From positions 8,604,501-8,668,500 of the forward strand of contig NZ_JAVDYC010000001.1 in assembly GCF_031458255.1 (NCBI RefSeq): a stretch of DNA of 64,000 nt. Reading direction: 5' to 3'. Shown piece by piece: positions 24,450 to 39,273 of the stretch (position 1 is the stretch's first letter; every line of letters begins with the position of its first letter). Source of the stretch: Catenuloplanes niger. GTDB taxonomy: Bacteria > Actinomycetota > Actinomycetes > Mycobacteriales > Micromonosporaceae. Both the position numbers and the translations under genes were made by a program. Under the pieces are notes generated by a model, which searched no databases, was not told the origin of the DNA, and saw nothing but the letters and a program-made list of their open reading frames with translations.

Positions 24450-24564
24450 CTGTGCAATCCTTTTCCGGATCACAAAACCACCGTTAATGCCGACGGTGGT
24501 CATTCCGCTGTGTGCGTAGCCGGAACGGCAATTGACGGGAATCCCTGACGGGATGAAGGAGCAA

Positions 24565-27500
24565 ATGGTGCATGCCCGGCCGTCGGAGAATGCAAGTCAC
24601 GAACGATACGAAGCGGTCACGCTGCAGCCCGGAATGCTGTTCGGGCGGCACCGGCGGCATTCCGGCGTCGACCTGCTGCAGGTCGTCGTGGACTGGCCGG
24701 TTCTGCTCGACCCCGCCGCGATGCGCACGGCCTGGCGGCACGCCGCCGCCCGGCACCCGGTGTTGCGCACCGGCTTCGACTGGCCGCTCGGCGACCCGCC
24801 CACCCAGGCGGTCCGGCCGTCCGCCGAGGTGCCGGTCGAGCTGCACGACTGGACCGGCACGCCGGACCGGGACCTGGCCGCGTTCCTGGCGGCGGACCGG
24901 GGCACCGGCTTCGACCACGCACACCCGCCGCTGGTGCGCGTCACACTGATCACGCACCGGCCCGGCCGGCACACCGTCGCGATCACGCTGCACCACGCCA
25001 TCCTGGACGGCCGGTCCGTCCGGCACCTGCTGGCCGAGGTCTTCACCGAGCACGACGCGCTCGCGGCCGGCCGGGCGTTCACCGCGCCGGACCGGCCGGC
25101 GTACCGCGACTTCGCCCTGTGGGTGGCGTCCCGGCCGGAGAACGGCGACCGCCCGTTCTGGCGGGCGCACCTGGCCGGCGCGACGCTGCCGACCCCGCTG
25201 CCGGTGCTCGCGCCCGCGGACGGCGCGCCGGACCGGACACCCGGCTCGGTCCGGGAGACCGCGCTGGAGCTGACCGCGGCGCAGACCGACGCGCTGCGGG
25301 CGACCGGCGTCCCGATGGACACGCTGGTCACCGCGGCCTGGGCGGCCACGCTGCGGCAGCACACCGACGGCGACGACGTGGTCTTCGGCTCCGTGCGCTC
25401 CTGCCGGCGGGACACCGTCGACGGCGCGGACCGGATGATCGGCCTGCTGATCAACACGCTGCCGCTGCGCGTGCCGGTCGCGGCCGGCCGGCCGGTCCGC
25501 GACTGGCTGGCCGAGACCGGGCGGCGCGTCACCGGCCTGCACGACCATCGGCTCACACCGCTCGACCGGATCCAGCGGTGGAGCGGCGTGCCGGCCGACC
25601 GGCCGCTGTTCGACACGCTGCTGATGTACGACCACCGGAACCTGCAGAGCTCGCTGGCCGCCACCGTGCCCGGCTGGGGCGGGCGGCGGGCCCGCGTCCA
25701 CCGGCACCCGGGCCCGCCCGTCACACTGTGCGTCTTCGGCGAACCGGGCGTGCACGCGCTGCTCTACCACGACCGGCACCGGCTCGCCCCGGCCGCGGCC
25801 GACGCGCTTCTCCACCTGTTCGGCGCGATCCTCACCGCCCTGCCGGCCCACCTCGACGGGTACGTCCGCGACCTGCCCGGCGCCGGCCGCCTCGCCGATC
25901 CGCCGGCTCCGGCCCGGCCGGCCTGCGAGTCGCCGGACACGGACAACCACGACGCACCGGGTACGGCCCGCGCCGCTGACCCGCCCGGCGATGCCGGGGG
26001 CCGCGGCCGCGCGGTGCTGTTCGGACCGGACCGGCCGGCCGCGCTCGCCGGCCGTACCGTGGTGGATCTGGTCGTGGCCCGGGTCGAGGCACGGCCGGAC
26101 GCGGTCGCGGTCGTCGCGCCGGACGCCACGCTCACCTACCGGGAGCTGCTGGAACGCGCGGACCGGGTGGCCGGCGGGCTCCTGGACGCGGGCGTCCGGC
26201 CGGACACGCCGGTCGCGGTCGCGCTGCCCCGCTCGGCCGCGCTGATCGTCGCGCTGCTCGGCGTGCTCCGCGCCGGCGCCGGCTATCTGCCGCTCGACCC
26301 GGCCGACCCGCCGGACCGCACCGCCGCGATCCTGGACCAGGCGGGCGACCCGATCACGATCACCGCGGAGTCGATCCCGGACGCGGCGCCGCGCACCCGC
26401 GCCGCGCACCCGGCCGGGCTCGCCTACGTCTGCCACACCAGCGGCTCCACCGGCGTGCCGAAGGCGGTCGGCGTGCCGCACGCGGCCGTGGTCCGGCTCG
26501 TCCACGAACCCGGCTACCTGCGGCTCGGGCCCGGCGAACGGGTGCTGCACCTGGCGCCGGTCGCGTTCGACGCGGCCACACTGGAGATCTGGGGCAGCCT
26601 CGCGTCCGGCGCCACGCTCGTGGCCGCGCCGCCCGGCCCGCTCGGCGCGGCCGAGGTCGCGGACGTGGTGCGCCGCGAGCGGATCAGCGTGCTGTGGCTG
26701 ACCGCCGGCCTGTTCCACCAGGTCGTCGAGCTGGCCCCGGACGGTCTGGCCGGCGTCGGGCAACTGCTCGCCGGCGGTGACGTGCTCGACCCGGCCGCGG
26801 TCCGCCGCGCGCTGCGCGCCCGCAACGGCCAACCCCTGATCAACGGGTACGGCCCGACGGAGAACACCACGTTCACCACCGTGCACGTGCTGACCGGCGC
26901 GGACGAGGTGCCCGAGCCGGTGCCGATCGGCCGCCCGGTGCCCGGTACGGCCGTGTACCTGCTCGACGCGGCGCTGCGCCCGGTCCCGGCCGGGACGCCC
27001 GGCGACCTCTACACGGGCGGGACCGGCCTGGCCCGCGGCTACCTCGGGCGGCCGGCCGCGACCGCGCGGGTGTTCCTGCCGGATCCGTTCCGTGGCGTGC
27101 CGGGCGCGCGGATGTACCGCACCGGCGACCGGGCCCGCCTCCGCGCGGACGGCACGCTGGAGTTCCTCGGCCGCGCGGACGACCAGGTGAAGATCCGCGG
27201 GTTCCGGGTCGAGCCGGGGGAGGCCGCGGCGGTGCTGCGCCGCCATCCCGCGGTGACCGACGCGGCCGTGGTCGCGGACGGCACCGGCGAACGGCGGCGG
27301 CTGATCGGCTACTACTGCGTCCGCGACGGCGTACCGGTGGACGACCTCGCCGGCTTCCTGAGCCGGCACCTGCCCGCCTACCTGCGGCCGGCCGCGCTGG
27401 TGCCGCTGCCCGCGCTGCCGCTGACCCCGGCCGGGAAGCTCGACCGCCGGGCGCTGCCCGCCCCGCCCGCGTCCGCGTCCGGTGCCGCGCCGCGCGGTGA

Positions 27501-30500
27501 CGTCGAGACCCGGCTGGCGGCGATCTGGTGCGAGCTGCTGGGCGTGCCGGCGGCCGGCCGGGACGACGACTTCTTCGCGCGGGGCGGCAATTCGCTGCTG
27601 GCCACCCGGCTCACGTTCGCGGTCGCGGACGCGTTCCACGTCGACCTGCCGGTCCGCACCGTCTTCGACACGCCGGCACTGCGCGACATCGCGGCCGCGA
27701 TCGCGGCCCGGCCGCCGTCCGATGTGGACGGCCCGGTGGCCCGGGACCGCTCGGCGTATCGGCTCACCCCGCCCGGCGCCGCCCCGTCCGCCGCACCGGG
27801 GTCCCCGGTGCGGGACCGGTCCGTGCCGGCCGGCGAGGCCGGGCCGGTCGCGCCGGATACCGCGACGGGGAATCGGGACGATGCCGGGCCCGCGGCGCCC
27901 GGTGTCGCGGAAGGCGCGGCGATCCGGGGTGCGGCGAGCGGTGTCGGCGCGCATCTCGTGCGGCCGGGTGGGGACTGGGCGCTGTGGCGGTGGGTCGGGC
28001 TGCGGGCCGCAGGCTTCCCCATCGACACGCTGACCGCGCTCGGCGACCCGGCGCTCGGCGACGCCGCCGACGCGCTGGACGACGCCGGGCAGCGGTGTGA
28101 CGACGCCCGGCGCGCGCTCGGCCACCTGCTGCACCTCGCGCGGGCGGCCGCCCCGCCCGGCGAGCGTGGGCCGTGGAACCGGGCCGCCCGCCACGCCCGC
28201 CGGGACACCGCACCCGCCCCGCTCCCACCCAGGGTCTCCGCCGCGCACTCCACTCCCCACGACGCCACCGCCTCCCTGACACGGAAGCCCGCAGCGCCGG
28301 AAACGCGGGAGCCCGCAGCGCCGGGAGTGCGGGAGCCCGTAGCGCCGGGAGCGCGGGAGCCCGCAGCGCCGGGAGCGCGGAAGTCCGTGGCGCCGGGAGT
28401 GCGGGAGCCCGTGGCGCCGGAAACACCGGAACCCGCAGCGCCGGAGGCGCGGCAGTCCGCGGCGCCGGAAGCGAGCGAGCCCGCGCCGCACCGCGTGTCC
28501 GAAGTGGAGTACGACGCGCTCGTGGCCGCGCACACGGCCGCGGTGGCCGCGCACGCCGCCCACGAGGAGGCGCGGGAGCGGTTCGCCGTGGCGTACGAGC
28601 GGGCGTCCGCGCACCGCACGGACGGGCTGCGGCGGGCCGCCGCCGACCCGCGCTTCCGGGAGGCCGTCGCCTGGCAGAACCGGGCCGCGCTGCACACCGG
28701 CGTCGCGGACGTGGCGAGGCCGGGTGGTGCGGGTTCGCAGTACCGGCAGCATCAGGCGCTGGTCGCCACGTACCTGCAGCGGTACTGCGGGAAGAACGAC
28801 ACGATCGGGTTCTTCGGGCCGGTCGGCTGGGCGGAGGTCACCGATGCCGGCCCGGCGCTGGGGCTGCGCCCGGCCGGCCTGGCCGCCCGGACCGTGTACT
28901 TCGAGAACTGGGCCGTGTCCGCGCTGGCCGACCGGCTCGCCGGCGACGACCGGCTGCAGCCGTGGCTGGTCCCGCGCCGCATGCCGTTCCTGCGGGTCGA
29001 CGGCGACGCCCTGTTGCTGCCGCTGACCCCGCCGGCGCCGCTCGACCCGGACACGGCACGGCTGCTGCGCGCCGCGGACGGGACCCGGACCGCGGGCGAG
29101 ATCGCCGCCGCGCTCGGCGCGGACCCGGACGACGTGTTCCGGCGGCTGGCCGGGCTGCGCGACGCACGCCGGATCTCGTGGTCGTTCGAGGTGCCCAAGG
29201 AGGACGTGTTCCCGGAGCGCGCGCTCCGGGCCCGGCTCGCCGCGGTCGGTGACCCGGCCGCACGCGCGCGGGCGCTCGCCGCGCTGGACCGGCTGGAGGC
29301 GGCCCGGGACGCGGTCGCGGCGGCGGCCGGTGACCCGGACCGGCTCGACGCGGCCATCACCGGCCTGGAGCGAACCTTCACCGACCTCACGGGTACGGCC
29401 GCCACCCGCCGCGCCGGGAAGGCGTACGCCGGCCGGACCGTGGTCTACGAGGACTGCCGTTCCGGTACCGGCGTGACGCTCTCGACGGAGCTGGTCGGCA
29501 CGCTCTGGCCGTCGCTGAGCCTGCTGCTGGCCAGCGCGCGCTGGTTCACGTTCGCCGGTGCGGCGCTGTTCCACCGGGCCTGCGCGGACCGCTACCGGGA
29601 GCTGGCCGCGCGGTCCGGCTCGCCGGACGTACCGTTCGCGGATTTCTGGCTCTGGGCCGGTGACGTGCTGTTCGACGCGCCGGAGCGGCTGACCGGCCCG
29701 GTCGTGCGGGGCCTGCGGGAGCGCTGGTCGAGGATCCTGCCGGCCGCGGACCGGGGCCGGATCACCGCGGACTCGGCCGCGCTCGCCGACGAGGTCCGGC
29801 GGCGTTTCGCGGCGCCCCGGCCCGGCTGGTCCGGCGCGCACCAGCACAGCCCGGACGTGATGCTGGCCGCGGACGGGCCGGACGCGATCGGCCGCGGCGA
29901 CTTCCACTGGGTGGTCGGCGAGGTGCATCCGGGCGTGAACACGCTGCGCTCCGCGCTGTTCGTCGCCCAGCACCCGGACCCGGACCGGCTGCGTGCCGCG
30001 ATGCTCGCCGACCTGCCGCGCCGCCGGATCGTGCTGGCCGCGACCGGGGAGGAGGGCGGCGCCCCGGCCCGGATCACCGACGGTCTGGTGACCGGCCGCG
30101 ACCTGCGGATCGTGTTCGGGCACGACAGCGGCGGCCTGGACCCGGCGACCGCGCTGCCGGTCGCGGACTGCGTGCTGCGCGACGACGGCGGTGTGCTCAC
30201 CGTGGCGAGCCGGGACGGGCGGCACCGCATGCCGCTGGCCGAGGTGATCGGCGAACCGGTGATGCTGCAACTGCTGCAGCGCTTCGACGTGCTGCCGCCG
30301 GCGGACCACCGGCCCCGGGTCACGGTCGACCGGGTGGTCTGGTCGCGGGAGTCGTGGACGTTCCCGGCCGCGGGCCTGGACTTCGCGCACGTGGCGGACG
30401 AGGCCGACCGGTTCCGGCGGGCCCGGGCGTGGCAACGCGCCCATCGGCTGCCCCGGCACGTGTTCGTCGTGTCGCCGGCCGAGAAGAAGCCGTTCCACCT

Positions 30501-30690
30501 GGACCTGGCCAGCCTCGCGTCGGTGGACGTGTTCGCCCGCGCGGTCCGCCGCGCCGGGCCGGACGCGCGCCTGAAGCTCAGCGAGATGCTGCCCGGCCCG
30601 GACCAGACCTGGCTGACCGGCACCGACGGCCGCCGGCACACCGCCGAGTTGCGCCTGGTCGCCGTCGACACCCGAAGGGACCACCCATGA
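24565..30690 (+). CDS. NRPS 1: C - A - PCP fused to lantibiotic-dehydratase-N / PEARL-like domain
   Basis: 2041 residues. The condensation domain (1-450) opens with LQPGMLFG, a form seen in DCL, dual or starter C domains, and has an intact HHAILDG at ~143-149. The A domain (~498-960) carries CHTSGSTGVPK, NGYGPTENTT and GKLDRRALP; its deduced pocket D-A-L-W-L-G-G-T-F-K resembles Val-like codes. The PCP has Ser1010 in GGNSLL. After a linker of eight 24-bp repeats (AAPGxREP units, ~1243-1306) residues ~1312-2041 read like the glutamylation half of class I lanthipeptide dehydratases: YRQHQALVATYLQRYCGKND, TIGFFGPVGW, VVYEDCRSGTG, WSGAHQHSPD. The SpaB-like elimination domain is absent. LanB-N/PEARL enzymes use aminoacyl-tRNA, so a tRNA-dependent step on the tethered peptide is inferred. 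Start: AAGGAG just before ATG 24565 (GTG 24568 is possible). Confidence 0.85.
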   Translation: MVHARPSENASHERYEAVTLQPGMLFGRHRRHSGVDLLQVVVDWPVLLDPAAMRTAWRHAAARHPVLRTGFDWPLGDPPTQAVRPSAEVPVELHDWTGTPDRDLAAFLAADRGTGFDHAHPPLVRVTLITHRPGRHTVAITLHHAILDGRSVRHLLAEVFTEHDALAAGRAFTAPDRPAYRDFALWVASRPENGDRPFWRAHLAGATLPTPLPVLAPADGAPDRTPGSVRETALELTAAQTDALRATGVPMDTLVTAAWAATLRQHTDGDDVVFGSVRSCRRDTVDGADRMIGLLINTLPLRVPVAAGRPVRDWLAETGRRVTGLHDHRLTPLDRIQRWSGVPADRPLFDTLLMYDHRNLQSSLAATVPGWGGRRARVHRHPGPPVTLCVFGEPGVHALLYHDRHRLAPAAADALLHLFGAILTALPAHLDGYVRDLPGAGRLADPPAPARPACESPDTDNHDAPGTARAADPPGDAGGRGRAVLFGPDRPAALAGRTVVDLVVARVEARPDAVAVVAPDATLTYRELLERADRVAGGLLDAGVRPDTPVAVALPRSAALIVALLGVLRAGAGYLPLDPADPPDRTAAILDQAGDPITITAESIPDAAPRTRAAHPAGLAYVCHTSGSTGVPKAVGVPHAAVVRLVHEPGYLRLGPGERVLHLAPVAFDAATLEIWGSLASGATLVAAPPGPLGAAEVADVVRRERISVLWLTAGLFHQVVELAPDGLAGVGQLLAGGDVLDPAAVRRALRARNGQPLINGYGPTENTTFTTVHVLTGADEVPEPVPIGRPVPGTAVYLLDAALRPVPAGTPGDLYTGGTGLARGYLGRPAATARVFLPDPFRGVPGARMYRTGDRARLRADGTLEFLGRADDQVKIRGFRVEPGEAAAVLRRHPAVTDAAVVADGTGERRRLIGYYCVRDGVPVDDLAGFLSRHLPAYLRPAALVPLPALPLTPAGKLDRRALPAPPASASGAAPRGDVETRLAAIWCELLGVPAAGRDDDFFARGGNSLLATRLTFAVADAFHVDLPVRTVFDTPALRDIAAAIAARPPSDVDGPVARDRSAYRLTPPGAAPSAAPGSPVRDRSVPAGEAGPVAPDTATGNRDDAGPAAPGVAEGAAIRGAASGVGAHLVRPGGDWALWRWVGLRAAGFPIDTLTALGDPALGDAADALDDAGQRCDDARRALGHLLHLARAAAPPGERGPWNRAARHARRDTAPAPLPPRVSAAHSTPHDATASLTRKPAAPETREPAAPGVREPVAPGAREPAAPGARKSVAPGVREPVAPETPEPAAPEARQSAAPEASEPAPHRVSEVEYDALVAAHTAAVAAHAAHEEARERFAVAYERASAHRTDGLRRAAADPRFREAVAWQNRAALHTGVADVARPGGAGSQYRQHQALVATYLQRYCGKNDTIGFFGPVGWAEVTDAGPALGLRPAGLAARTVYFENWAVSALADRLAGDDRLQPWLVPRRMPFLRVDGDALLLPLTPPAPLDPDTARLLRAADGTRTAGEIAAALGADPDDVFRRLAGLRDARRISWSFEVPKEDVFPERALRARLAAVGDPAARARALAALDRLEAARDAVAAAAGDPDRLDAAITGLERTFTDLTGTAATRRAGKAYAGRTVVYEDCRSGTGVTLSTELVGTLWPSLSLLLASARWFTFAGAALFHRACADRYRELAARSGSPDVPFADFWLWAGDVLFDAPERLTGPVVRGLRERWSRILPAADRGRITADSAALADEVRRRFAAPRPGWSGAHQHSPDVMLAADGPDAIGRGDFHWVVGEVHPGVNTLRSALFVAQHPDPDRLRAAMLADLPRRRIVLAATGEEGGAPARITDGLVTGRDLRIVFGHDSGGLDPATALPVADCVLRDDGGVLTVASRDGRHRMPLAEVIGEPVMLQLLQRFDVLPPADHRPRVTVDRVVWSRESWTFPAAGLDFAHVADEADRFRRARAWQRAHRLPRHVFVVSPAEKKPFHLDLASLASVDVFARAVRRAGPDARLKLSEMLPGPDQTWLTGTDGRRHTAELRLVAVDTRRDHP
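28291..28482 (+). repeat. 24-bp tandem repeat, eight copies, in the NRPS1 linker
   Basis: Eight in-frame, imperfect 24-bp units (consensus GCAGCGCCGGGAGYGCGGGA plus GCCC) encode AAPG(V/A)REP-type octapeptides that join the PCP to the LanB-like domain. A flexible Pro-rich hinge, probably length-variable between strains. Confidence 0.9.
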
Positions 30691-30752
30691 ACGAGTTCGC
30701 GAGCCGACCATCGGCGCGGCGTGGCCGCGGCGGCGCGGGCGGCCCGGCATGA
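30687..30752 (+). CDS. 21-residue bridging ORF between NRPS1 and NRPS2
   Basis: MNEFASRPSARRGRGGAGGP A: its ATG overlaps the NRPS1 stop and its TGA overlaps the NRPS2 ATG, both as ATGA, so ribosomes can pass through it. NRPS2 has no ribosome site of its own, so this ORF may pass on coupled ribosomes. The DNA resembles the spacer at 33889-33925; both look like one dispersed Micromonosporaceae-type repeat. It may not yield a functional peptide. Confidence 0.5.
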   Translation: MNEFASRPSARRGRGGAGGPA

Positions 30753-33700
30753 GCGACACCTACCTGCTGCCGGCCTCGCTCACCCAGCGGCGGCTGTGGC
30801 TGCTCGACCAGCTCGGTCCGGGCGCCGCCACGTACAACATCGCCTGGCTCGTGTCGTTGGACGGGCCGCTGGACGTGGCGGCGCTGGAGGCCGCGCTGAC
30901 CCGGCTGGTCGCCCGGCACGAGAGCCTGCGCACGCACTTCACGGCCGTGGACGGCGAACCGGCCCAGGTGGTCGAGCCGGCCGGCCCGGTCCGCCTGCAC
31001 CCGGTGGACGCCGGCGAGGACTGGCGGCGGCACGTCGACGAGGCCGCCCGCCGCCCGTTCGATCTGGCGGCCGGGCCGCTGACCCGGTTCACGTTGCTGC
31101 GCCGGCCGGACGGCTCGCACGCGCTGGTCTGGGTGGTGCATCACGCGGTCGCGGACGGCTGGTCGTTCGGCGTGCTCTTCGGCGAGCTGACCGCGGCCTA
31201 CGCGGGTGAGGCGCTGCCGGACGCGCCGATGCAGTACGGCGACTTCGCGATCTGGCAGCGGGAGCAGGCCCGGCTCGGCGCGTTCGACGACGACCTCACG
31301 TACTGGCACCGTGCGCTGACCGGTGCGCCGGTGCTGCTGGACCTGCCCGCCGACCGGCCCCGTCCGGCCGAGCAGGACGACGCCGGTGGCACGGTGACGC
31401 GCGAGGTGCCGCCGGAGCTGACCGCGCGGCTGCGGCAGGGGACCGGCACCGTGCTCACCCCGCTGCTGGCCGGCTTCCAGGCGCTGCTGCACCGGCTCAC
31501 CGGCCAGGACGACCTGCTCGTCGCGCTGCCGGTCGCGGCGCGGACCCGGCCGCGGACCCGCGATGTCGTCGGTTTCTTCGCCAACACGCTGGCGCTGCGC
31601 GCGGTGTTCCCGGCGGGCGTGACGTTCGGGCAACTGCTGGCCGCGGCGCGGGACTCGGTCGCGGCCGCGCAGACCCGGCAGGAGGCCCCGTTCGAGCAGG
31701 TAGTGGAGCGGCTCGCGGTGCCGCGCAGCCTCGCCCACCCGCCGCTGGTGCAGGTGATGTTCGCGCTGGAGGAGGCGCCGCCGTCCCGGACCGCGGCCGG
31801 CCTGCGGGTCACGCCGCGGCTGTGGGAGAACGGCACCGTCAAGTTCGACCTCACGCTCACCGTGGAGGACCGGCCGGCCGGGCTGCGGCTGCGTGTCACC
31901 TACCGGTCCGGGCTGTTCGACGAGGCCCGGATCCGCGCGCTGACCGAGCAGTACCTGGCGCTGCTGGCCGCGGGCCTGGACCGGCCGGAGACGCCGGTCG
32001 CCACGGTGCCGTTGCTGGGCGAGGGGGACCGGGCGCGGCTGCGGGCGTACGGCACCGGCGACGCGGTGCCGGCGGTCGCGGACCTGTCCCGGCTCACCGG
32101 GGACGCGATCGCGGTGTCCGGGCCGGACGGCGAGCTCAGCTACCGGGAGCTGGACGCGCGGGCGAACCGGCTCGCGCACCTGCTGCGCGCGCACGGCGCC
32201 GGGCCGGACACCCCGGTCGGGCTGGCGCTGGGCCGCGGTACGTGGCTGGTCGCGGCGATCCTCGCGGTGTGGCGGGCCGGCGCCGGATACCTGCCGCTCG
32301 ACCCGAGCCTGCCACCGGCCCGGATCGCCACCATGCTGGCCGACGCCCGGCCGCCGGTGGTGCTCACCGACGGCCCGTTCGACGATCCACACACGAGGGT
32401 GGTACGGGTGGACACCGTCGATGCGGACCGGTTCCCCGCGTCCGGGCCGCCGCGGGTCGAGGTGCACCCGGACGCGCTGGCCTACCTGCTCTACACGTCC
32501 GGGTCGACCGGCCGGCCGAAGGGCGTCGCGGTGTCGCACGCGGCCGTCACCGACCTGCTCGCCGGGTTCCGTACCGTGCTCGGGCTGACCGCGGCGGACC
32601 GGGTCGCGGCCGTGACCACGCACGCGTTCGACATCTCCGTCGTCGAGCTGGTGCTGCCGCTGCTGGCCGGCGCGCGGATCGAGATGATCGACGCGGACAC
32701 CGCGCGGGACGCGGCGCTGCTGCGGGCCGCGCTCGCCGACCGGCGCGTCACGGTCGCCCAGGGCACGCCGGCGACCTGGCGGATGCTGGTGACCGCCGGT
32801 GGCGTACCGCCGGGTGTGCGGTTGCGGATCAGCGGCGGCGAGGCGCTCTCCCGGGACCTGGCCGACCGGCTCCGGGACGGCGGGACGGTGATCAACGGTT
32901 ACGGGCCGTCGGAGACCACGGTCTACTCCACCGCCGGTCCGGTCGGCCCGGACGGGCCGGTCAGCCTGGGGCGGCCGACGCCGAACACGACCGTGCACCT
33001 GCTCGACCCGGCCGGGCAGCCGGTGCCGGAGGGCGTGGTCGGCGAACTGCACATCGGCGGGCCGGGCGTCGCGCGCGGCTACCTCGGGCAGGCCGGTGCG
33101 ACCGCGGCCCGGTTCCGGCCGGACCCGTACCGTCCGGGTGGCCGTCTCTACGCCACCGGGGACCTCGGGCGGTGGCGGTCCGACGGCACGCTCGACTTCC
33201 TCGGCCGCGCCGACGCCCAGCTGAAGGTGCGCGGCTTCCGGATCGAGCCGGGTGAGATCGAGACGCTGCTGCGCGAGCACCCGGCCGTCACCGAGGCGGT
33301 GGTGACCGCGCGCGGCGGTGGCCGGCTCGCCGCCTACGTCGTCACCACCGGCGGGTGGACCGCGGCGGAGCTGTGGCCGCAGCTGCGCGCCGGTATCACC
33401 GCGCGGCTGCCGGACTACATGATCCCGGCCGCGCTGGTGGTGCTGGACGCGCTGCCGCGCACCGCGAGCGGCAAGGCGGACCGGGCGGCGCTGCCCGAGC
33501 CGTCCTGGCGGGAGACGACCGGCGCGCCGGCCGTTCTCGCCCGCACACCGGTGGAGGAACGGCTGTCCGCGCTCTGGCGTGAGGTGCTGAACCTGCCGGA
33601 GGTCGGTGTGCACGACAACTTCTTCGCGCTCGGCGGGCACTCGCTCAACGCCGCCCGGCTGATCGCCCGGATCCGCACCGCGTTCGGCGCGGACGTCACG

Positions 33701-33892
33701 CTGCGCGACCTGTTCGCGGCCCCGACCGTCGCCGAACTCGCACCGCTGCTCGACCGGGCCACCCGCCCGGCGTCACCGCTCACCGGCCCGGCACGACCGG
33801 CGCCGGACCGGCTTCCGGACTCGCTCGACTCGCTCTCCGACGACGAGATCGACGCGCTGCTGGACGCACTGACCTCGGAGGAGGAATCGTGA
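30749..33892 (+). CDS. NRPS 2: C - A - PCP
   Basis: 1047 residues. LCL-type condensation domain at 1-430: SLTQRRLWLLDQL, HHAVADG with catalytic His at about 131-132, and RHESLRTHF. A domain ~450-910: YTSGSTGRPKG, FDISVVELVLPLL, NGYGPSETTVY, GKADRAALP. Pocket residues by alignment to GrsA are D-I-V-Q-I-G-G-V-Y-K; with Gln at position 278 and the 'GTPATWRML' context this belongs to the group around the Gly code DILQLGLIWK, so Gly or another small residue is a guess. PCP has Ser965 in GGHSLNAARL. It ends in an acidic DSLSDDEIDALLDALTSEEE, a typical C-terminal docking helix. It starts coupled to the 21-residue bridging ORF. Confidence 0.92.
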   Translation: MSDTYLLPASLTQRRLWLLDQLGPGAATYNIAWLVSLDGPLDVAALEAALTRLVARHESLRTHFTAVDGEPAQVVEPAGPVRLHPVDAGEDWRRHVDEAARRPFDLAAGPLTRFTLLRRPDGSHALVWVVHHAVADGWSFGVLFGELTAAYAGEALPDAPMQYGDFAIWQREQARLGAFDDDLTYWHRALTGAPVLLDLPADRPRPAEQDDAGGTVTREVPPELTARLRQGTGTVLTPLLAGFQALLHRLTGQDDLLVALPVAARTRPRTRDVVGFFANTLALRAVFPAGVTFGQLLAAARDSVAAAQTRQEAPFEQVVERLAVPRSLAHPPLVQVMFALEEAPPSRTAAGLRVTPRLWENGTVKFDLTLTVEDRPAGLRLRVTYRSGLFDEARIRALTEQYLALLAAGLDRPETPVATVPLLGEGDRARLRAYGTGDAVPAVADLSRLTGDAIAVSGPDGELSYRELDARANRLAHLLRAHGAGPDTPVGLALGRGTWLVAAILAVWRAGAGYLPLDPSLPPARIATMLADARPPVVLTDGPFDDPHTRVVRVDTVDADRFPASGPPRVEVHPDALAYLLYTSGSTGRPKGVAVSHAAVTDLLAGFRTVLGLTAADRVAAVTTHAFDISVVELVLPLLAGARIEMIDADTARDAALLRAALADRRVTVAQGTPATWRMLVTAGGVPPGVRLRISGGEALSRDLADRLRDGGTVINGYGPSETTVYSTAGPVGPDGPVSLGRPTPNTTVHLLDPAGQPVPEGVVGELHIGGPGVARGYLGQAGATAARFRPDPYRPGGRLYATGDLGRWRSDGTLDFLGRADAQLKVRGFRIEPGEIETLLREHPAVTEAVVTARGGGRLAAYVVTTGGWTAAELWPQLRAGITARLPDYMIPAALVVLDALPRTASGKADRAALPEPSWRETTGAPAVLARTPVEERLSALWREVLNLPEVGVHDNFFALGGHSLNAARLIARIRTAFGADVTLRDLFAAPTVAELAPLLDRATRPASPLTGPARPAPDRLPDSLDSLSDDEIDALLDALTSEEES

Positions 33893-33966
33893 GGGAGCTT
33901 GCGACCGGATCATCGGCTCGGCGCCGGCCACCGCGCGCCCGCCGCGTGCACGGGAGCCGGGCATGA
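33889..33966 (+). CDS. 25-residue bridging ORF between NRPS2 and the monooxygenase
   Basis: GTG start overlaps the NRPS2 stop (GTGA) and its TGA overlaps the next ATG (ATGA). The translated start is MRELATGSSARRRPPRARR. The first ~35 bases match the 30687 spacer at about three quarters of positions. Same interpretation: a dispersed repeat turned into a coupled mini-ORF. Confidence 0.45.
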   Translation: MRELATGSSARRRPPRARRVHGSRA

Positions 33967-35312
33967 CCGCGCCCCGCGAGCACGCGGTCATCGTCGGCGC
34001 CGGGCTGGCCGGCTCGCTGACCGCGGTGTTCCTCGCCCGCCGCGGGTTCCGGGTGTCCGTCTACGAACGGCGGCCGGACCCGCGGGCCGCCGGCACCGCG
34101 GCCACCGGCCGGTCGATCAACCTCGGGCTGTCCGCGCGCGGGATGGCCGCGCTCGACGAGGCCGGGCTGCTCGGCGCCGTGCTGGACCGCAGCGTGCCGA
34201 TGCGCGGCCGGGTGGTGCACCGGCCCGACGGCACGACCCGGTTCCAGCCGTACGGCGTGCGCGAGCACGAGATCCTGCACTCGGTGCTCCGCGACGACCT
34301 GCTCCGGCTGCTCGTCGACACCGCGGCCGCGCACCCGGACGTGCGGTTCCACTTCGGACGGTCGCTGACCGGGCTGGACCGGGACAAGGGCACGGTGGAG
34401 GTCGCGGACCCGGCCGAGACCGTCGAGGCCGACCTGATCGTCGGCGCGGACGGCGTGTTCTCGGCCGCGCGCCGGCACCTGCAGCACGGGCTGCGCGCCG
34501 ACTACGCGCAGGAGTTCCTGCCGTGGGGCTACACCGAGCTGACCATCCCGGCCGGGCCCGGCGGCGTGCCCCGGGTGCGCCTGGAGGCGCTGCACGTCTG
34601 GCCGGGCGAGGACGCGCTGATGGTCGCGCACCCGAACCGGGACGGCTCGCTGACCTGCTCGCTGTTCATGGCGCACGAGGGGCCGGTCAGCTTCGCGGCG
34701 CTGCGCGACCGGGCCGCGATCCACGCGTTCACCGACGCCGCGTTCCCGGACGCGCGCGAGCTGATGCCGGACCTGGCGGAGGAACTGCTGGCCCATCCGG
34801 TCGGGCGGCTCGTCACGGTCCGGACCGCGCCGTGGCGGCACGAGGACCGGGTGGTGCTGGTCGGCGACGCGGCGCACGCGGTCTACCCGTTCTTCGGGCA
34901 GGGGATGAACGCCGCGTTCGAGGACTGCCTGGTCCTGGACGCGTGCCTGGGCCGGCACGCGGACCGGGGCACCGCGCTGGCCGCGTACGAGGCCGCGCGC
35001 CGGCCGCACACCGACGTGCTCGCCGACCTGTCCGCCGCGAACTTCACCGAGCTGCGGGCGCGCGTGCACCGGCCCGGCTACGTGCTGGCCGCGGCCGCGG
35101 ACCGGGCGCTGTCCCGGCTGCTGCCGCACCGCTGGGTGCCGCTCTACACGCTGGTCGCGCACACCACCACGCCGTACGCGGACGCGCTCGCCCGGGTGCG
35201 TCACCAGCGCCGCACGCTCGCCGGCGCCGCCGCGCTGGTGACCGGCGTCGCGCTGGCCACCGGCGCGGCGCTGCTGGCCGCCCGCCGCCCGGGACGGGAC
35301 CGGGCATGCTGA
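33963..35312 (+). CDS. kynurenine 3-monooxygenase homologue
   Basis: 449-residue flavoprotein hydroxylase. FAD motif VIVGAGLAGSLTAVFLARRG; the segment GRSINLGLSARGMAALDEAGL is the kynurenine 3-monooxygenase signature (GRSINLALS.RG..AL), followed by RGRVVH, HSVLRDDLLRLL, the DG motif VGADGVFSAAR and GDAAHAVYPFFGQGMNAAFED. The C terminus carries a hydrophobic helix (AALVTGVALATGAALLA), matching the membrane anchor of typical KMOs. The reaction would be ortho-hydroxylation of kynurenine, or of a related anthranilate-like aryl amino acid, using NADPH and O2. In sibiromycin-type pathways the same enzyme makes 3-hydroxykynurenine for an NRPS product. Here it is embedded between NRPS genes, so a hydroxylated aryl building block is likely. 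Confidence 0.88.
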   Translation: MTAPREHAVIVGAGLAGSLTAVFLARRGFRVSVYERRPDPRAAGTAATGRSINLGLSARGMAALDEAGLLGAVLDRSVPMRGRVVHRPDGTTRFQPYGVREHEILHSVLRDDLLRLLVDTAAAHPDVRFHFGRSLTGLDRDKGTVEVADPAETVEADLIVGADGVFSAARRHLQHGLRADYAQEFLPWGYTELTIPAGPGGVPRVRLEALHVWPGEDALMVAHPNRDGSLTCSLFMAHEGPVSFAALRDRAAIHAFTDAAFPDARELMPDLAEELLAHPVGRLVTVRTAPWRHEDRVVLVGDAAHAVYPFFGQGMNAAFEDCLVLDACLGRHADRGTALAAYEAARRPHTDVLADLSAANFTELRARVHRPGYVLAAAADRALSRLLPHRWVPLYTLVAHTTTPYADALARVRHQRRTLAGAAALVTGVALATGAALLAARRPGRDRAC

Positions 35313-36004
35313 CCCGGCACGGTTTCCCCGAGCACGTGCTGTTCGACGCGGCCGACCTGCACGCCGACCTGCCGCACCCGCTCGTCGCCGGCGTCACCGG
35401 CCGGCTCCTCGAGGTGCTCGCCTGGGCCCGGCAGTACCTCTGCGGGCCGCACCCGGACCTGGGCCGCAAGGGCCCGGTGTGCCCGTTCGTGCAGGGCTCG
35501 CTGGACCGCGGCGTGTTCTACCTCGCGGTGCACCGCGGCGACACGCTCGACCCGGACGACCTGGACGCGCTGCTGGCCGGGTACCGGGACTGGTTCACCG
35601 CGCTGGAACCCGCGCACGGCCCGGCCGCCCAGTTCAAGACGATCCTGCTCACGCTGCCCGACCTGCCCGACGAGGTGGCCCGGGTGCAGGTGGACCGCGC
35701 GCAGGCCCGGCTCAAGGCCGCGTACACCGAGCGCGGCCTGATGATCGGCGAGTTCCACGACGGGCCACCGGCCAAGGGCGGCCTGTGGAACCCGGACTTC
35801 CGGCCGCTGCACAGCCCGGTGCCGCTGCTGGCGATCCGGCACATGGTGCCCAGCGACTTCCCGTTCCTCGCCGACGACCCGGTGACGCTCGGCGCGTACC
35901 TGCACCGCTTCTCCGGCAGCGGCCCGGTGGCGCTGCGCCGGCAGGTCGCGGCCGCCGCCACCCGCTTCGGGCTCGAACTGCCCGCCCAGACCCAGGAGGC
36001 CTGA
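35306..36004 (+). CDS. conserved NRPS-cluster protein, DUF6875-like (232 aa)
   Basis: No signal peptide or membrane segment. Motifs: VCPFVQGSLDRGVFYLAVH, FKTILLTLPDLPDE, ERGLMIGEFHDG, GGLWNPDFRPLHSPVPLLAIRHMV, DFPFLADD. I believe this pattern is a family listed as DUF6875 but cannot confirm the number. The invariant-looking Cys, His and Asp residues (CPF, GEFHD, RHMV) could bind metal or heme. It starts inside the monooxygenase gene (overlap of seven bases) and ends sharing one base with the NRPS3 start, so it belongs to the same operon and most likely acts with the monooxygenase on precursor supply, or on a carrier-bound residue. Its biochemical role is not known to me. Confidence 0.65.
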   Translation: MLTRHGFPEHVLFDAADLHADLPHPLVAGVTGRLLEVLAWARQYLCGPHPDLGRKGPVCPFVQGSLDRGVFYLAVHRGDTLDPDDLDALLAGYRDWFTALEPAHGPAAQFKTILLTLPDLPDEVARVQVDRAQARLKAAYTERGLMIGEFHDGPPAKGGLWNPDFRPLHSPVPLLAIRHMVPSDFPFLADDPVTLGAYLHRFSGSGPVALRRQVAAAATRFGLELPAQTQEA

Positions 36005-39000
36005 TGAGCACCGATTCCACCGCGCCGGGCGAGGGCAAGCGGGCGCTGCTGGCCCGCCTGCTGACCGAGCGGGCGCGGGCCCCGCGCACCCACCCGGCCT
36101 CGTTCGGGCAGCAGCGGCTGTGGTTCCTGGACCGGTTCGCCGGCGGCACCGCCGTCTACCACATCCCGGTCGCGTTCCACCTGCGCGGGACGGTCGACGA
36201 GGCCGCGCTGCGCACCGCGCTGGCCGCGGTCGTGGCCCGGCACGACGTGCTGCGCACCACGTTCGCGGAGTCGGGCGGCGAGGTCGTGCAGGTCGTGCAT
36301 CCGTCGTCCGCGGTGCGGCTGGAGATCGTCGACGCGGCCGGCGGCACCCGGGCCGAGGGCCGGCGGCTCGCGGCCGAGTTCGGGCGGCGGCCGTTCGACC
36401 TGGCGGCCGGGCCGCTGCTGCGCGCCGCGCTGATCCGGCTCGGGCCGGACGAGCACGTGCTCACGCTGGTGCTGCACCACATCGTCTCGGACGCCTGGTC
36501 GCTCGGCGTGCTCTTCACCGACCTGAACGCCGCGTACACGGCCGCCCGCGACGGCCGCGACCCGCGGCTGCCACCGCTGCCGGTGCAGTACGCCGACTTC
36601 GCCCGCTGGCAGCGCGAGCAGCTCGGCGGTGACCTGCTCACCGGGCAGCTCGACTTCTGGCTCGACCACCTGCGCGGCGCGCCCGCGCTGCTCACGCTGC
36701 CCACCGACCGGCACCGGCCGGCGGTCCGCGAGCACCGCGGCGCGGTCCACTACCTGACGCTGGCGCCCGCGCTGGTCGACCGGGTCACCGCGTTCAACCG
36801 GGCCGCCGGCGTCACCATGTTCATGACGCTGCTCGCCGTGTTCCAGACCGTCCTCGCCCGGCACGCCGGCCAGGACGACGTGGTGATCGGCACGCCGGTC
36901 GCCGGCCGTGGCCACCCCGACCTGGAGGGCCTGGCCGGGTTCTTCGTCAACACGGTCGCGCTGCGGCTGTCGTCGGCCGGCCGGCCGTCACTGCGCGAGC
37001 TGGCCGCCCGCGCCCGCGAGGTCACGCTGAACGGGCTCGGCAACGCGGACCTGCCGTTCGAACGGCTCGTCGAGGAGCTGCAGCCGGAGCGCAGCCTCGC
37101 GCACACGCCGGTGTTCCAGGCCCAGCTGATCCTGCAGAACGCGCCGCAGGCACCGTTCCGGCTCGGCGACACGGCCGCCACGTCACTGGAGCTGGACACC
37201 GGCACCGCGAAGTTCGACCTGACCCTGGTCGGCGAGGCCACCGGCTCCGGCGGGCTGCGGCTGGCCGTGGAGTACGACACCGACCTGTTCGACGCGTCCA
37301 CGATCGACCGGCTCACCCGGCACCTGAGCACGCTGCTCACCGCGGGTGTCGCCGCGCCGGACCGCCCGCTGCACCTGATCCCGCTGCTCAGCGGCGCGGA
37401 ACGGTGGGAGGTGCTGACCGGCTGGAACGACACCGACCGCGGTACGCCACCGGACGGCTCGGTGCTCGACCTGGTCGACCCGGCCGCCGGCGCCACGATC
37501 ACCGGCCCGGACGGCACGCTGGACACCGCCGCGCTGCTGGACCGCGCCGGCCGGATCGCGGCCCGGCTGCGCGACGCCGGCGTCACCGCGGACAGCCCGG
37601 TCGGGCTGTGCCTGTCACGCGGCACCGGCATGCTCGCGGCCGTGCTCGGCGTCTGGTGGGCCGGCGCGGGATACCTGCCGCTCGACCCGGACCTGCCCGC
37701 GGACCGGCTGCGTTACATGCTCACCGACTCCGGCGCCCGCGTCGTGCTCACCGACGCGGCCGTCGCGGCCCGGCTCGGCCCGGTGCTGGCGACCGCGCCG
37801 ACCGTGCTGGTCGACCGGGACGACCCGGCGGCCGTGCCGGAGCGGCAGCCGGTGCACCCGGACGGGCTCGCCTACCTGATCTACACGTCCGGGTCGACCG
37901 GCCGGCCGAAGGGCGTGGCCGTGCCGCACCGCGCCGTGGTCAACCTGGTCGCGTCGTTCCATGACGACCTCGACCTCGGCGCCGGCGACGTGTTCGCGGC
38001 CGTCACCACGCTGTCGTTCGACATCTCCGTGCTGGAGCTGCTCGTCCCGCTGGTCCGCGGCATCCCGCTGGAGATCGTCGGCGCGGCCGAGGCCGGTGAC
38101 GGCGCCGCGCTGCGCGCCCGGCTGGAGTCGTCCGGCGCGACCGCGATGCAGGCGACGCCCGCCACCTGGCGGCTGCTGCTCGCGGCCGGCGGTGTACCGG
38201 ACCGGGTGCGCCTGCGGCTCTGCGGCGGTGAGGCGTTGCCCCGCGACCTGGCCGACCGGCTGCTCACCGCCGACGCCCGGCTGTGGAACTGCTACGGCCC
38301 GACCGAGACCACGGTGTGGTCCGCGGCCGGTCCCGTGCCGCCGTCCCCGGCTCCGATCGGCCTGGGCGCGCCGATCGCGAACACCCGCGTCTACGTGCTG
38401 GACGAGGCGTTGCAGCCGGTCCCGGCCGGGGTGGTCGGCGAGATCTACATCGGCGGTACGGGCGTGGTCCGCGGCTACCACGGCCGGGCCGGCCTGACCG
38501 CGCGCCGGTTCCTGCCCGACCCGTACGCGGACACGCCCGGCGCCCGCCTCTACGCCACCGGCGACCTGGGCCGCCGCCGCGCCGACGGGCGGCTGGAGTT
38601 CCTCGGCCGCGGCGACCACCAGATCAAGGTGCGCGGATTCCGGATCGAGCCCGGCGAGATCGAGGCCGTGCTGCGCGCCGACCCGCGGGTCGCGGACGCG
38701 GTCGTCGGCGCCTGGACCGGCGGCGACGGCGACACCCGGCTGGCCGGGCACGTCGTGGCCGCGGACGGCACCGACCCGGCCACGCTTCCGGAGCTGCTGC
38801 GCCCGGTGCTGGCCGCGCGGCTGCCCGGCTACATGGTCCCGTCCCACCTGGACGTGCTGCCCGCGCTGCCGCTCAACGCGAACGGCAAGGTCGACCGCGG
38901 CGCGCTGCCCGCACCGCGCTGGGGCGATCGACGCGCGCCGGCGGTCGCCCCGCGTACCCCGGTGGAACAGGTGCTGGCCGGGATCTGGCGGGACGTGCTG

Positions 39001-39273
39001 CGCGGCGGCCCGGTCGGCGCGCACGACGACTTCTTCCGGCTCGGCGGCCACTCGCTGCTCGGCGCGCAGGTGGTGGCGCGCACGTCCGACACGTTCGGGA
39101 TCACCGTGCCGATCCGGGTGCTGTTCGAGGCGCCGACCGTGGCCGCCATGGCGTCCGCGCTGACCGCGTTCGAACCGCAGCCCGGCCACCTGCACGCGGT
39201 CGCGGCGGTCCGCCTCGAGGTCGCCGGCCTGTCCGACGAGGAACTGCACCGGATGCTGGAGGAACGGGCATGA
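36004..39273 (+). CDS. NRPS 3: C - A - PCP
   Basis: 1089 residues. The C domain (~35-470) has SFGQQRLWFLDRF and HHIVSDAW at about 158, i.e. HHxxxDA rather than HHxxxDG; the catalytic His and Asp are kept. The A domain (~490-970) has YTSGSTGRPKG, FDISVLELLVPL, NCYGPTETTVW and GKVDRGALP; the pocket D-I-L-Q-L-G-C-V-W-K is close to the Gly code DILQLGLIWK, so glycine is the best guess. The PCP has Ser1017 in GGHSLLGAQV. A C-terminal acidic helix (SDEELHRMLEERA) looks like a docking element. The TGA overlaps the NRPS4 ATG. Start ATG 36004 shares a base with the upstream stop. No tailoring domain is present. Confidence 0.92.
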   Translation: MSTDSTAPGEGKRALLARLLTERARAPRTHPASFGQQRLWFLDRFAGGTAVYHIPVAFHLRGTVDEAALRTALAAVVARHDVLRTTFAESGGEVVQVVHPSSAVRLEIVDAAGGTRAEGRRLAAEFGRRPFDLAAGPLLRAALIRLGPDEHVLTLVLHHIVSDAWSLGVLFTDLNAAYTAARDGRDPRLPPLPVQYADFARWQREQLGGDLLTGQLDFWLDHLRGAPALLTLPTDRHRPAVREHRGAVHYLTLAPALVDRVTAFNRAAGVTMFMTLLAVFQTVLARHAGQDDVVIGTPVAGRGHPDLEGLAGFFVNTVALRLSSAGRPSLRELAARAREVTLNGLGNADLPFERLVEELQPERSLAHTPVFQAQLILQNAPQAPFRLGDTAATSLELDTGTAKFDLTLVGEATGSGGLRLAVEYDTDLFDASTIDRLTRHLSTLLTAGVAAPDRPLHLIPLLSGAERWEVLTGWNDTDRGTPPDGSVLDLVDPAAGATITGPDGTLDTAALLDRAGRIAARLRDAGVTADSPVGLCLSRGTGMLAAVLGVWWAGAGYLPLDPDLPADRLRYMLTDSGARVVLTDAAVAARLGPVLATAPTVLVDRDDPAAVPERQPVHPDGLAYLIYTSGSTGRPKGVAVPHRAVVNLVASFHDDLDLGAGDVFAAVTTLSFDISVLELLVPLVRGIPLEIVGAAEAGDGAALRARLESSGATAMQATPATWRLLLAAGGVPDRVRLRLCGGEALPRDLADRLLTADARLWNCYGPTETTVWSAAGPVPPSPAPIGLGAPIANTRVYVLDEALQPVPAGVVGEIYIGGTGVVRGYHGRAGLTARRFLPDPYADTPGARLYATGDLGRRRADGRLEFLGRGDHQIKVRGFRIEPGEIEAVLRADPRVADAVVGAWTGGDGDTRLAGHVVAADGTDPATLPELLRPVLAARLPGYMVPSHLDVLPALPLNANGKVDRGALPAPRWGDRRAPAVAPRTPVEQVLAGIWRDVLRGGPVGAHDDFFRLGGHSLLGAQVVARTSDTFGITVPIRVLFEAPTVAAMASALTAFEPQPGHLHAVAAVRLEVAGLSDEELHRMLEERA

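What the first reader, a model, noticed from the sequence alone, without database searches (positions are those of the whole stretch)
27592..30690. LanB-N/PEARL-like domain fused to an NRPS module
NRPS1 carries, after its PCP, ~730 residues with the YCGKNDTIGFFGP, VVYEDC and GAHQHSPD segments of class I lanthipeptide dehydratase N domains, but no SpaB-like elimination domain. LanB-N and PEARL enzymes take aminoacyl-tRNA. A direct fusion to C-A-PCP suggests a hybrid in which a tRNA-bound amino acid is added to, or glutamylates, the PCP-bound intermediate. I know of no characterised NRPS with this architecture.
Basis: partly seen in the sequence, partly recalled or inferred. Interest (0 to 1): 0.93.

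Follow-up and report, generated by a model that had tools for sequence, protein, structure and literature searches.

The report
tRNA-using ligase fused to peptide synthetase
A bacterial enzyme that builds peptides without the ribosome carries, in the same protein, a second peptide-bond maker of a type that borrows amino acids from transfer RNA, so one assembly line may draw on both of the cell's ways of making peptides.

Summary
One frame (24532-30690) reads C-A-T followed by a LanB-N fold (model pLDDT 86.5; all 11 PDB matches with E<=0.001 are LanB-type). The domain starts near residue 1143, earlier than stated, and is split by a repeat-bearing insertion. It is no chimera: 28 loci carry the fusion, in one set of 30 on the tree. 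Glutamylation is disfavoured: no elimination domain was found, and 12 published PEARL sites (aa-tRNA CCA, ATP-grasp) are identical in 28 of 28 fused rows; 10 of the 12 are kept in at least 90 of 92 stand-alone rows. It is best read as a PEARL (peptide aminoacyl-tRNA ligase) working in cis on a carrier-bound substrate. Two loci (L051, L121) keep the same A-T-PEARL unit but have A-T-Curea (ureido signature EHHXXHDG) in place of the first C domain: SnaA plus SnaE of threopeptin biosynthesis in one chain. I infer that the PEARL lengthens the initiation end at a free carboxylate, opposite to NRPS direction. The window's own C domain is not Curea; its donor is unknown. A stand-alone NRPS PEARL is characterised (2024), and that paper notes fusions to thiolation domains in one sentence. 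My searches listed no characterised fusion.

The parts
24532..30690 (+). NRPS1: C-A-T-PEARL, one open frame of 2052 aa (true start may be an ATG slightly downstream)
   Evidence: same fusion in 27 other loci
24604..25911 (+). C1 domain, active-site motif LHHAILDG (not Curea EHHXXHDG); member of a C clade seen with this PEARL
26050..27456 (+). A1 domain, signature read from anchor motifs and alignment as DALWLGGTF
27511..27702 (+). T (PCP) domain, FFARGGNSL
27958..28251 (+). N-terminal segment of the PEARL domain (WALWRWVGLRAAGFP; Arg1158 is the likely counterpart of TglB Arg10 / BhaB7 Arg34)
28249..28497 (+). Low-confidence (probably disordered) stretch inside the PEARL domain; holds the 24-base tandem repeat (28282-28484)
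28498..30684 (+). Main body of the PEARL (LanB-N fold) domain with the aa-tRNA and ATP-grasp sites (Y1414, R1417, Y1632, R1635, D1775, E1797, H1799, R1939, F1978, K1986, E2039, R2041); Y1632 lies in a short low-confidence stretch of the model
28969..29184 (+). PqqD/RRE-like winged helix inside the PEARL domain (limits inferred from the model's strand and helix order)
30749..33892 (+). NRPS2: C-A-T
33963..35312 (+). FAD monooxygenase, nearest NCBIfam model VioC (below its cut-off)
35306..36004 (+). DUF6875 protein, a family reported to be heme-binding tryptophan oxidases
36004..39273 (+). NRPS3: C-A-T
39270..43679 (+). NRPS4: C-A-T-R (thioester reductase release)
43672..44982 (+). MFS transporter, conserved in the cluster
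45022..46059 (+). Methyltransferase (matches below family cut-offs), conserved in the cluster

Best explanation
The C-terminal domain of NRPS1 is a PEARL fused to the first module of a four-module NRPS line that ends in a reductase. Shown: the C-A-T-LanB-N architecture, its conservation, the intact PEARL sites, and no elimination partner found. Inferred: (1) A1 loads an amino acid on T; (2) C1 caps its amine with an acyl group that leaves a free carboxylate, or makes an equivalent intermediate; (3) the fused PEARL phosphorylates that carboxylate with ATP, joins the amine of an aminoacyl-tRNA to it, and hydrolyses off the tRNA. This lengthens the initiation end opposite to NRPS direction while the other end stays on T and passes to NRPS2, NRPS3 and NRPS4-R. 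The fusion keeps the ligase beside its carrier-bound substrate. My confidence is about 0.8 for PEARL-type chemistry and about 0.5 for step 2 and the site of addition.
For: Fold: AlphaFold2 model pLDDT 86.5, pTM 0.84; 11 of 11 PDB matches with E<=0.001 are LanB-type (TbtB 7.6e-24, MibB, GodF, MadB, NisB). Sites: 12 of 12 have the BhaB7 residue in 28 of 28 fused rows; in 92 stand-alone rows R208, R429, D558, E575, H577, R715 and F755 are 92/92, E813 and R815 91/92 (one gap each), Y205 90/92, Y426 only 24/92, K763 26/92 with Arg in the other 66. Published TglB spacing D542-E564 (22) and E801-x-R803 equals the window's D1775-E1797 and E2039-x-R2041 (passages of PMC11117183 and PMC11962472, section 9 of PMC12945691). 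No elimination domain found. Direction: L051 and L121 are A-T-Curea-A-T-PEARL with EHHFVHDG and EHHFIHDG; their fused A and PEARL domains nest beside L049 (C-A-T-PEARL) and L050 (cut before its C) inside the fused group, so C1 and A-T-Curea stand in for each other before one conserved A-T-PEARL unit. Curea leaves a free carboxylate, and stand-alone SnaE is needed to add Thr there (PMC11212132). Carrier link beyond fusion: 22 of 60 stand-alone loci have a free T domain within 2.5 kb on the same strand (no chance control was run).
Against: C1 is not Curea (LHHAILDG), and none of the genes from 24532 to 46059 looks like an acyl-CoA ligase or a free carrier, so the source of a free carboxylate is not seen. 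Only 1 of 16 fused and 2 of 60 stand-alone loci hold a Curea motif in the DNA held (L121 adds one), so ureido chemistry is not the general partner. I had no TglB, BhaB7 or SnaE sequence; sites were matched by published numbering and spacing, one spacing differs (BhaB7 D558-E575 is 17, here 22), and the papers print TglB residue 542 as Asp in one and Glu in two. Y1632 is in a low-confidence stretch (model 494-499). The contrast with the genome's own LanBs rests on weak alignments (hhalign E 0.022 and 0.076), and one of them has His at the H577 position. PEARL Glu801 is also present in TbtB, so it does not discriminate. ATP and tRNA use by SnaE is itself inferred in its paper.
Confidence: 0.55

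Rival explanations
1. The domain is a LanB-type glutamylation domain that esterifies a Ser or Thr of the T-bound chain with Glu-tRNA, giving a dehydro residue after elimination.
For: Best structural match is the glutamylation domain TbtB; Pfam names it Lant_dehydr_N.
Against: The counterparts of D542 and R803 (TglB numbering), reported as conserved only in PEARLs, are invariant here (PMC11117183 passages). No elimination domain found in the window or in 92 fetched loci. None of the four A signatures looks like Ser or Thr (by recall).
Confidence: 0.07
2. The PEARL adds an amino acid to an oxidised tryptophan (vinylogous carboxylate), as AmmB3 and BhaB5 do; the VioC-like FAD enzyme and DUF6875 protein make that substrate.
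For: 19 of 28 fused loci carry both oxidase genes; DUF6875 proteins are reported heme tryptophan oxidases (PMC13307353 passages); AmmB3/BhaB5 precedent (PMC11117183 passages).
Against: 7 fused loci (L047, L048, L050, L051, L118, L119, L121) have neither gene after NRPS2 or elsewhere in the DNA held (two more, L046 and L049, end too soon to tell). Fusion is to module 1, while an oxidised Trp could sit at any module.
Confidence: 0.12
3. The domain acts in trans on a free, released or small carboxylic acid and is tethered only for convenience or co-expression.
For: The SnaE paper could not tell on-line from off-line addition. Stand-alone relatives are common (60 of 76 loci) and two (L120, L124) nest inside the fused clade, so tethering can be lost.
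Against: One conserved fusion, and a free T near stand-alone PEARLs in 22 of 60 loci.
Confidence: 0.2
4. The domain is inactive and serves as a structural or docking part.
For: Non-catalytic C-like domains (X domains) are known in NRPSs (introduction of PMC11212132); repeat expansion in the window's copy.
Against: All 12 sites kept in 28 of 28 fused rows, which a dead domain would not be expected to do.
Confidence: 0.05
5. Two neighbouring genes were joined by a frame or assembly error.
For: None for the window; one relative, L038, has C and A in another frame than T-PEARL.
Against: Same fusion in 28 loci; A-domain and PEARL-domain trees agree in the part compared (L051, L121, L050, L049); steady GC3.
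Confidence: 0.01

Closest known systems
SnaE (stand-alone PEARL-like enzyme of threopeptin biosynthesis, Stackebrandtia nassauensis) with SnaA (A-T-Curea-A-T)
   Same: PEARL in an NRPS gene cluster without elimination domain; L051 and L121 have the same A-T-Curea-A-T order with the PEARL attached
   Different: In the window the PEARL is part of the NRPS chain, and its first C domain is not Curea; product and added amino acid unknown
Peptide PEARLs: TglB, BhaB7 (BhaBC-Trp), AmmB1-3
   Same: LanB-N fold; tRNA-CCA and ATP-grasp residues at matching positions and mostly matching spacing
   Different: Those act on ribosomal scaffold peptides; this one is tied to a carrier domain
Split LanB glutamylation domain TbtB (PDB 6ec7, 6ec8)
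   Same: Closest solved fold (E 7.6e-24, TM 0.59 by query and 0.67 by target, rmsd 8.2)
   Different: Uses Glu-tRNA without ATP and needs an elimination enzyme; reported to have Tyr and Leu in place of PEARL Asp542 and Arg803
PacB of pacidamycin biosynthesis (recalled, not looked up)
   Same: tRNA-dependent aminoacylation of a PCP-bound NRPS intermediate
   Different: Different fold, no ATP; adds to the amine, not to a carboxylate

Membership tests
PEARL (peptide aminoacyl-tRNA ligase) | LanB-N fold without SpaB_C/PF14028 elimination domain in protein or neighbourhood | tested here: met
   fold; no elimination domain found
PEARL (peptide aminoacyl-tRNA ligase) | ATP-grasp residues (TglB D542, E801, R803; D542 and R803 are the discriminating ones) and tRNA 3'-end residues (BhaB7 Y205, R208, R429) | tested here: met
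   identical in 28 of 28 fused rows; matched by published numbering and spacing, without an alignment to TglB or BhaB7 themselves
PEARL (peptide aminoacyl-tRNA ligase) | ATP- and aa-tRNA-dependent amide formation at a carboxylate | not testable with these tools
   needs biochemistry
PEARL (peptide aminoacyl-tRNA ligase) | ribosomal scaffold peptide encoded nearby (classical PEARLs; none identified for the NRPS PEARLs by Yu and van der Donk) | not tested
   no search for small precursor genes was made
Class I lanthipeptide dehydratase (LanB) | glutamate elimination domain, fused or encoded alongside | tested here: not met
NRPS-associated PEARL of SnaE type | partner NRPS in the same cluster | tested here: met
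   same polypeptide plus NRPS2-4
NRPS-associated PEARL of SnaE type | ureido-forming C domain (EHHXXHDG) that exposes a free carboxylate | tested here: not met
   window motif LHHAILDG; among the 28 fused loci found only in L051 and L121
NRPS elongation/initiation module | C with HHxxxDG, A with core motifs, T with attachment Ser | tested here: met

The most novel reading that the evidence does not exclude
The fused PEARL starts the chain: it joins an acid to an aminoacyl-tRNA and, instead of letting the tRNA be hydrolysed, hands the acyl-aminoacyl-tRNA ester to C1, which uses it as its donor in place of an upstream carrier and condenses it with the amino acid on T. The NRPS line would then be primed from charged tRNA, which would explain a first module with a C domain intact by motif but no donor carrier, and why C1 and PEARL travel together.
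Probability: 0.1. Interest if true: 0.92.

Novelty: new variant of a known kind. Interest (0 to 1): 0.63.

Why it matters
NRPS lines and PEARLs are two different ways to make amide bonds. A conserved single protein holding both makes direct tests possible: whether a tRNA-dependent ligase works on a carrier-bound NRPS intermediate, at which end, and what the odd first C domain does. It also gives a way to read the many 'lantibiotic dehydratase' genes in NRPS clusters, and A-T-PEARL is a natural cassette (C1 or A-T-Curea in front) for building peptides outward from both ends.

Tried and rejected
Rejected: frame or assembly artefact (28 loci); LanB glutamylation; long stop-free frames as proof of fusion: several relatives have frames near or above 2000 aa, but the two that I read (L120, L124) are noise before a stand-alone PEARL, so I counted fusions only where a T domain is in the same frame. 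A dedicated tRNA in the cluster: ARAGORN calls tRNA-Arg at 32866-32962 inside NRPS2, but Rfam finds nothing in the window at gathering scores, so I take it as false.

Led nowhere: A-domain signatures are not in the paper library (0 papers), so substrate guesses are recall only. C1's nearest solved sequence is a PvdL C domain, which hints at a starter C but does not settle it. Pfam did not list PF04738 for L051 at E<=0.001, although BLAST gives 47% identity to the window domain. A repeat of the PF04738 search added nothing. Biffamycin (PMC13285481, passages) has a heme Trp hydroxylase but no lantibiotic dehydratase or PEARL in its text.

Choices behind counts: A1 used the window and 13 of the 30 loci that one search gave; A2 used the window and 29 of the 76 loci. 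I left out loci whose N-terminal motif my pattern missed, and some near-duplicates. The search for related loci kept the best 80 of 327. The PEARL tree dropped matches under 600 aa; it is a quick tree, midpoint-rooted, SH-aLRT support only. The C-domain count needed 250 model positions, so L036 (cut), L047 and L050 (no C held) are not in it. L038 is counted as fused by its T domain only. The motif-to-motif distance came out for 25 of 43 proteins.

Errors, not refusals: my coordinates gave stops; machine gave no answer; 17 was asked again with a shorter query and fewer genomes as, 79 was not repeated; bad search word, repeated without it; pdb_via library not available; went on with Foldseek only; report did not fit its schema. 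misread minus-strand loci and was replaced; one search failed on a file format and was replaced; my pattern hit the wrong place in L036 and L037, so I set those starts.
Full report
1. What is there. The + strand ORF 24532-30690 (2052 aa) reads through without a break; third-position GC is high along its length. Pfam finds Condensation, AMP-binding, PP-binding and Lant_dehydr_N. NCBIfam finds nothing at E<=0.01 for the LanB-like part alone, and sequence search of PDB chains finds no LanB, so the fold had to be tested. An AlphaFold2 model from 30 aligned sequences (A2) has pLDDT 86.5 and pTM 0.84; the stretches below 50 are model residues 105-187 (protein 1240-1322), 289-291 and 494-499. The long one holds a 24-base tandem repeat and varies in length: the distance from the N-terminal motif to the WQN motif is 227 residues in the window, 153 in the same-genus relative L112, and 60-141 in the other 23 proteins for which the script gave a value (25 of 43). 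Foldseek against the PDB gives 11 matches with E<=0.001, all LanB-type (that GodF belongs there is recall); the best is the TbtB glutamylation domain (E 7.6e-24, rmsd 8.2). Next, far below significance, come Cp1B ligase (0.23) and others.

2. It is conserved. In 76 distinct loci from a scan of one genome for each of 84,980 species (the best 80 of 327 confirmed stretches were kept), 16 have a T domain in the same frame before the PEARL: 12 C-A-T-PEARL (one with C cut by the contig edge), two A-T-PEARL cut by the contig edge, one A-T-C-A-T-PEARL (L051), and one with T only (L038, where C and A lie in another frame). In a sample of 150 genomes of the window's family (69 of 150 with a match), at least 11 genomes carry fusions, counting only loci that I opened. 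The family is Micromonosporaceae: one same-family contig has the length, 10,148,719 bases, of the Phytohabitans suffuscus chromosome. On a quick tree of 120 domains the 28 fused rows sit in one set of 30 with SH-aLRT 99; the two stand-alone rows inside are L120 and L124, and the label needs two changes. The A domains of the fused modules form one clade (27 plus L038, support 1.0), and the non-urea C1 domains another (22 plus L038, support 0.974). This fits one fusion inherited as a unit and lost once; a second gain in place of the loss is not excluded.

3. PEARL, not dehydratase. Two features are reported to tell the two apart: no elimination partner, and extra residues for ATP (PMC11212132 text parts 1-3 of 6, PMC11117183 passages, PMC11962472 passages, PMC12945691 section 9). 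The genome has two ordinary LanBs, each with its own elimination domain, and the four PF14028 matches are all in or close beside them. tblastn with those elimination domains found none in the window or in 92 other loci, both controls positive. Twelve published PEARL sites are identical in 28 of 28 fused rows; ten of them are kept in 90-92 of 92 stand-alone rows, the exceptions being Y426 (24 of 92) and K763 (Lys in 26, Arg in 66). The thirteenth, Arg34/Arg10, fits an Arg invariant in the 30 rows of A2. Limits: I matched by published numbers and spacing, not by alignment to TglB or BhaB7; one spacing differs (17 against 22); and the papers print TglB 542 as Asp in one and Glu in two. Alignments to the genome's own LanBs are weak; they show G and R at the D542 position and A and S at the E564 position, but one has His at the next site.

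4. Which end, and on what. A PEARL joins the amine of aa-tRNA to a carboxylate. On a T domain the alpha-carboxylate is a thioester, so the target must be another carboxylate. L051 (Micromonospora wenchangensis) and L121 (unnamed) are A-T-C-A-T-PEARL, and their C domain reads EHHFVHDG and EHHFIHDG, the signature EHHXXHDG of ureido-forming C domains (PMC11212132). That reaction leaves a free carboxylate at the initiation end, and in threopeptin biosynthesis the stand-alone SnaE is needed to add Thr there. So these two proteins look like SnaA and SnaE in one chain. Their A and PEARL domains group with those of L049 (C-A-T-PEARL) and L050 (contig cut before C) within the fused set, so in this lineage the first C domain seems to have been exchanged for A-T-Curea in front of the same A-T-PEARL unit. 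I infer that C1 and Curea hand the PEARL an equivalent intermediate. In the window C1 reads LHHAILDG, intact by motif but not Curea; its nearest solved sequence is a PvdL C domain. None of the window genes from 24532 to 46059 looks like an acyl donor enzyme or free carrier; the flanks of relatives were searched only with window genes, not annotated in full. The donor is unknown, and this is the weakest step.

5. Carrier partnership. Of 60 stand-alone loci, 22 have a freestanding T domain (no A or C in its frame) within 2.5 kb on the same strand, usually just upstream (no chance control). 53 of 60 have an A domain and 34 of 60 a C domain in the DNA held, which is short for some loci. The fusion may then be the covalent form of a wider T-PEARL pairing.

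6. The cluster. Searching L112/L125, L113/L126 and L115/L127 with window genes gives a conserved set: NRPS1, NRPS2, FAD monooxygenase, DUF6875, NRPS3, NRPS4 with terminal reductase, MFS, methyltransferase. Of the genes beyond, four gene queries (cupin, oxidoreductase, ThuA-like, ORF 51502) matched well, and only in the same-genus L112/L125. DUF6875 proteins are described as heme-binding tryptophan oxidases (passages of PMC13307353), and the FAD enzyme is nearest to VioC (below cut-off), so a hydroxylated, perhaps O-methylated tryptophan in a reductively released peptide is a fair guess. Both oxidase genes are in 19 of 28 fused loci, not found in seven, and undecided in two short contigs, so the PEARL does not seem to depend on them.

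7. Known or new. I searched the paper library five times for PEARLs or lantibiotic dehydratases in NRPS settings (listed were 20 of 22, 14 of 16, 15 of 86, 15 of 63 and 12 of 89 papers). Among those listed, the threopeptin paper and its preprint are the only ones whose title or abstract is about a PEARL in an NRPS pathway. I read the first three of six parts of the 2024 paper (to the start of its references), not its supplement. [quoted passage not shown] The fusion as a fact is therefore in print. I saw no characterised example and, in the listings and passages seen, no description of the C-A-T-PEARL clade, of the A-T-Curea-A-T-PEARL form, or of T-PEARL gene pairs; the unread supplement or unlisted papers may hold some. 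I call it a new variant of a known kind.

Noticed in passing
L055, L059, L072, L073, L075-L078, L081, L086, L093, L097, L099-L102, L111 and five others: A freestanding carrier (T) domain near stand-alone PEARLs, usually just upstream: 22 of 60 loci. In L079 the order is PEARL, A, T, PEARL, with no C domain found in the 22 kb held.
   Followed up: partly
L120, L124: Stand-alone PEARLs nested inside the fused clade, with no NRPS A or C domain found in 19.5 kb: probable loss of the fusion and of the NRPS context.
   Followed up: partly
28969-29184: PqqD/RRE-like winged helix inside an NRPS protein; with no leader peptide known here it might have been turned to carrier binding.
   Followed up: no
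28249-28497: 24-base tandem repeat (8.5 copies) inside the PEARL domain; the stretch is longer here than in the same-genus relative L112 (227 against 153 residues between flanking motifs).
   Followed up: partly
33963-36004: VioC-like FAD monooxygenase next to DUF6875, a family reported as heme tryptophan oxidases, with a methyltransferase at 45022: a likely tryptophan-tailoring set.
   Followed up: partly
L038: C and A lie in another frame than T-PEARL, unlike the seven other Saccharothrix loci; a frame break in that contig or gene. Left as it is.
   Followed up: no
G000:C1 near 3.335 Mb and 1.242 Mb (L132, L133): Two ordinary LanBs with elimination domains, each with a further PF14028 match close by, in the same genome.
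   Followed up: partly
32866-32962: ARAGORN calls a tRNA-Arg inside NRPS2; Rfam does not support it, so probably false.
   Followed up: yes
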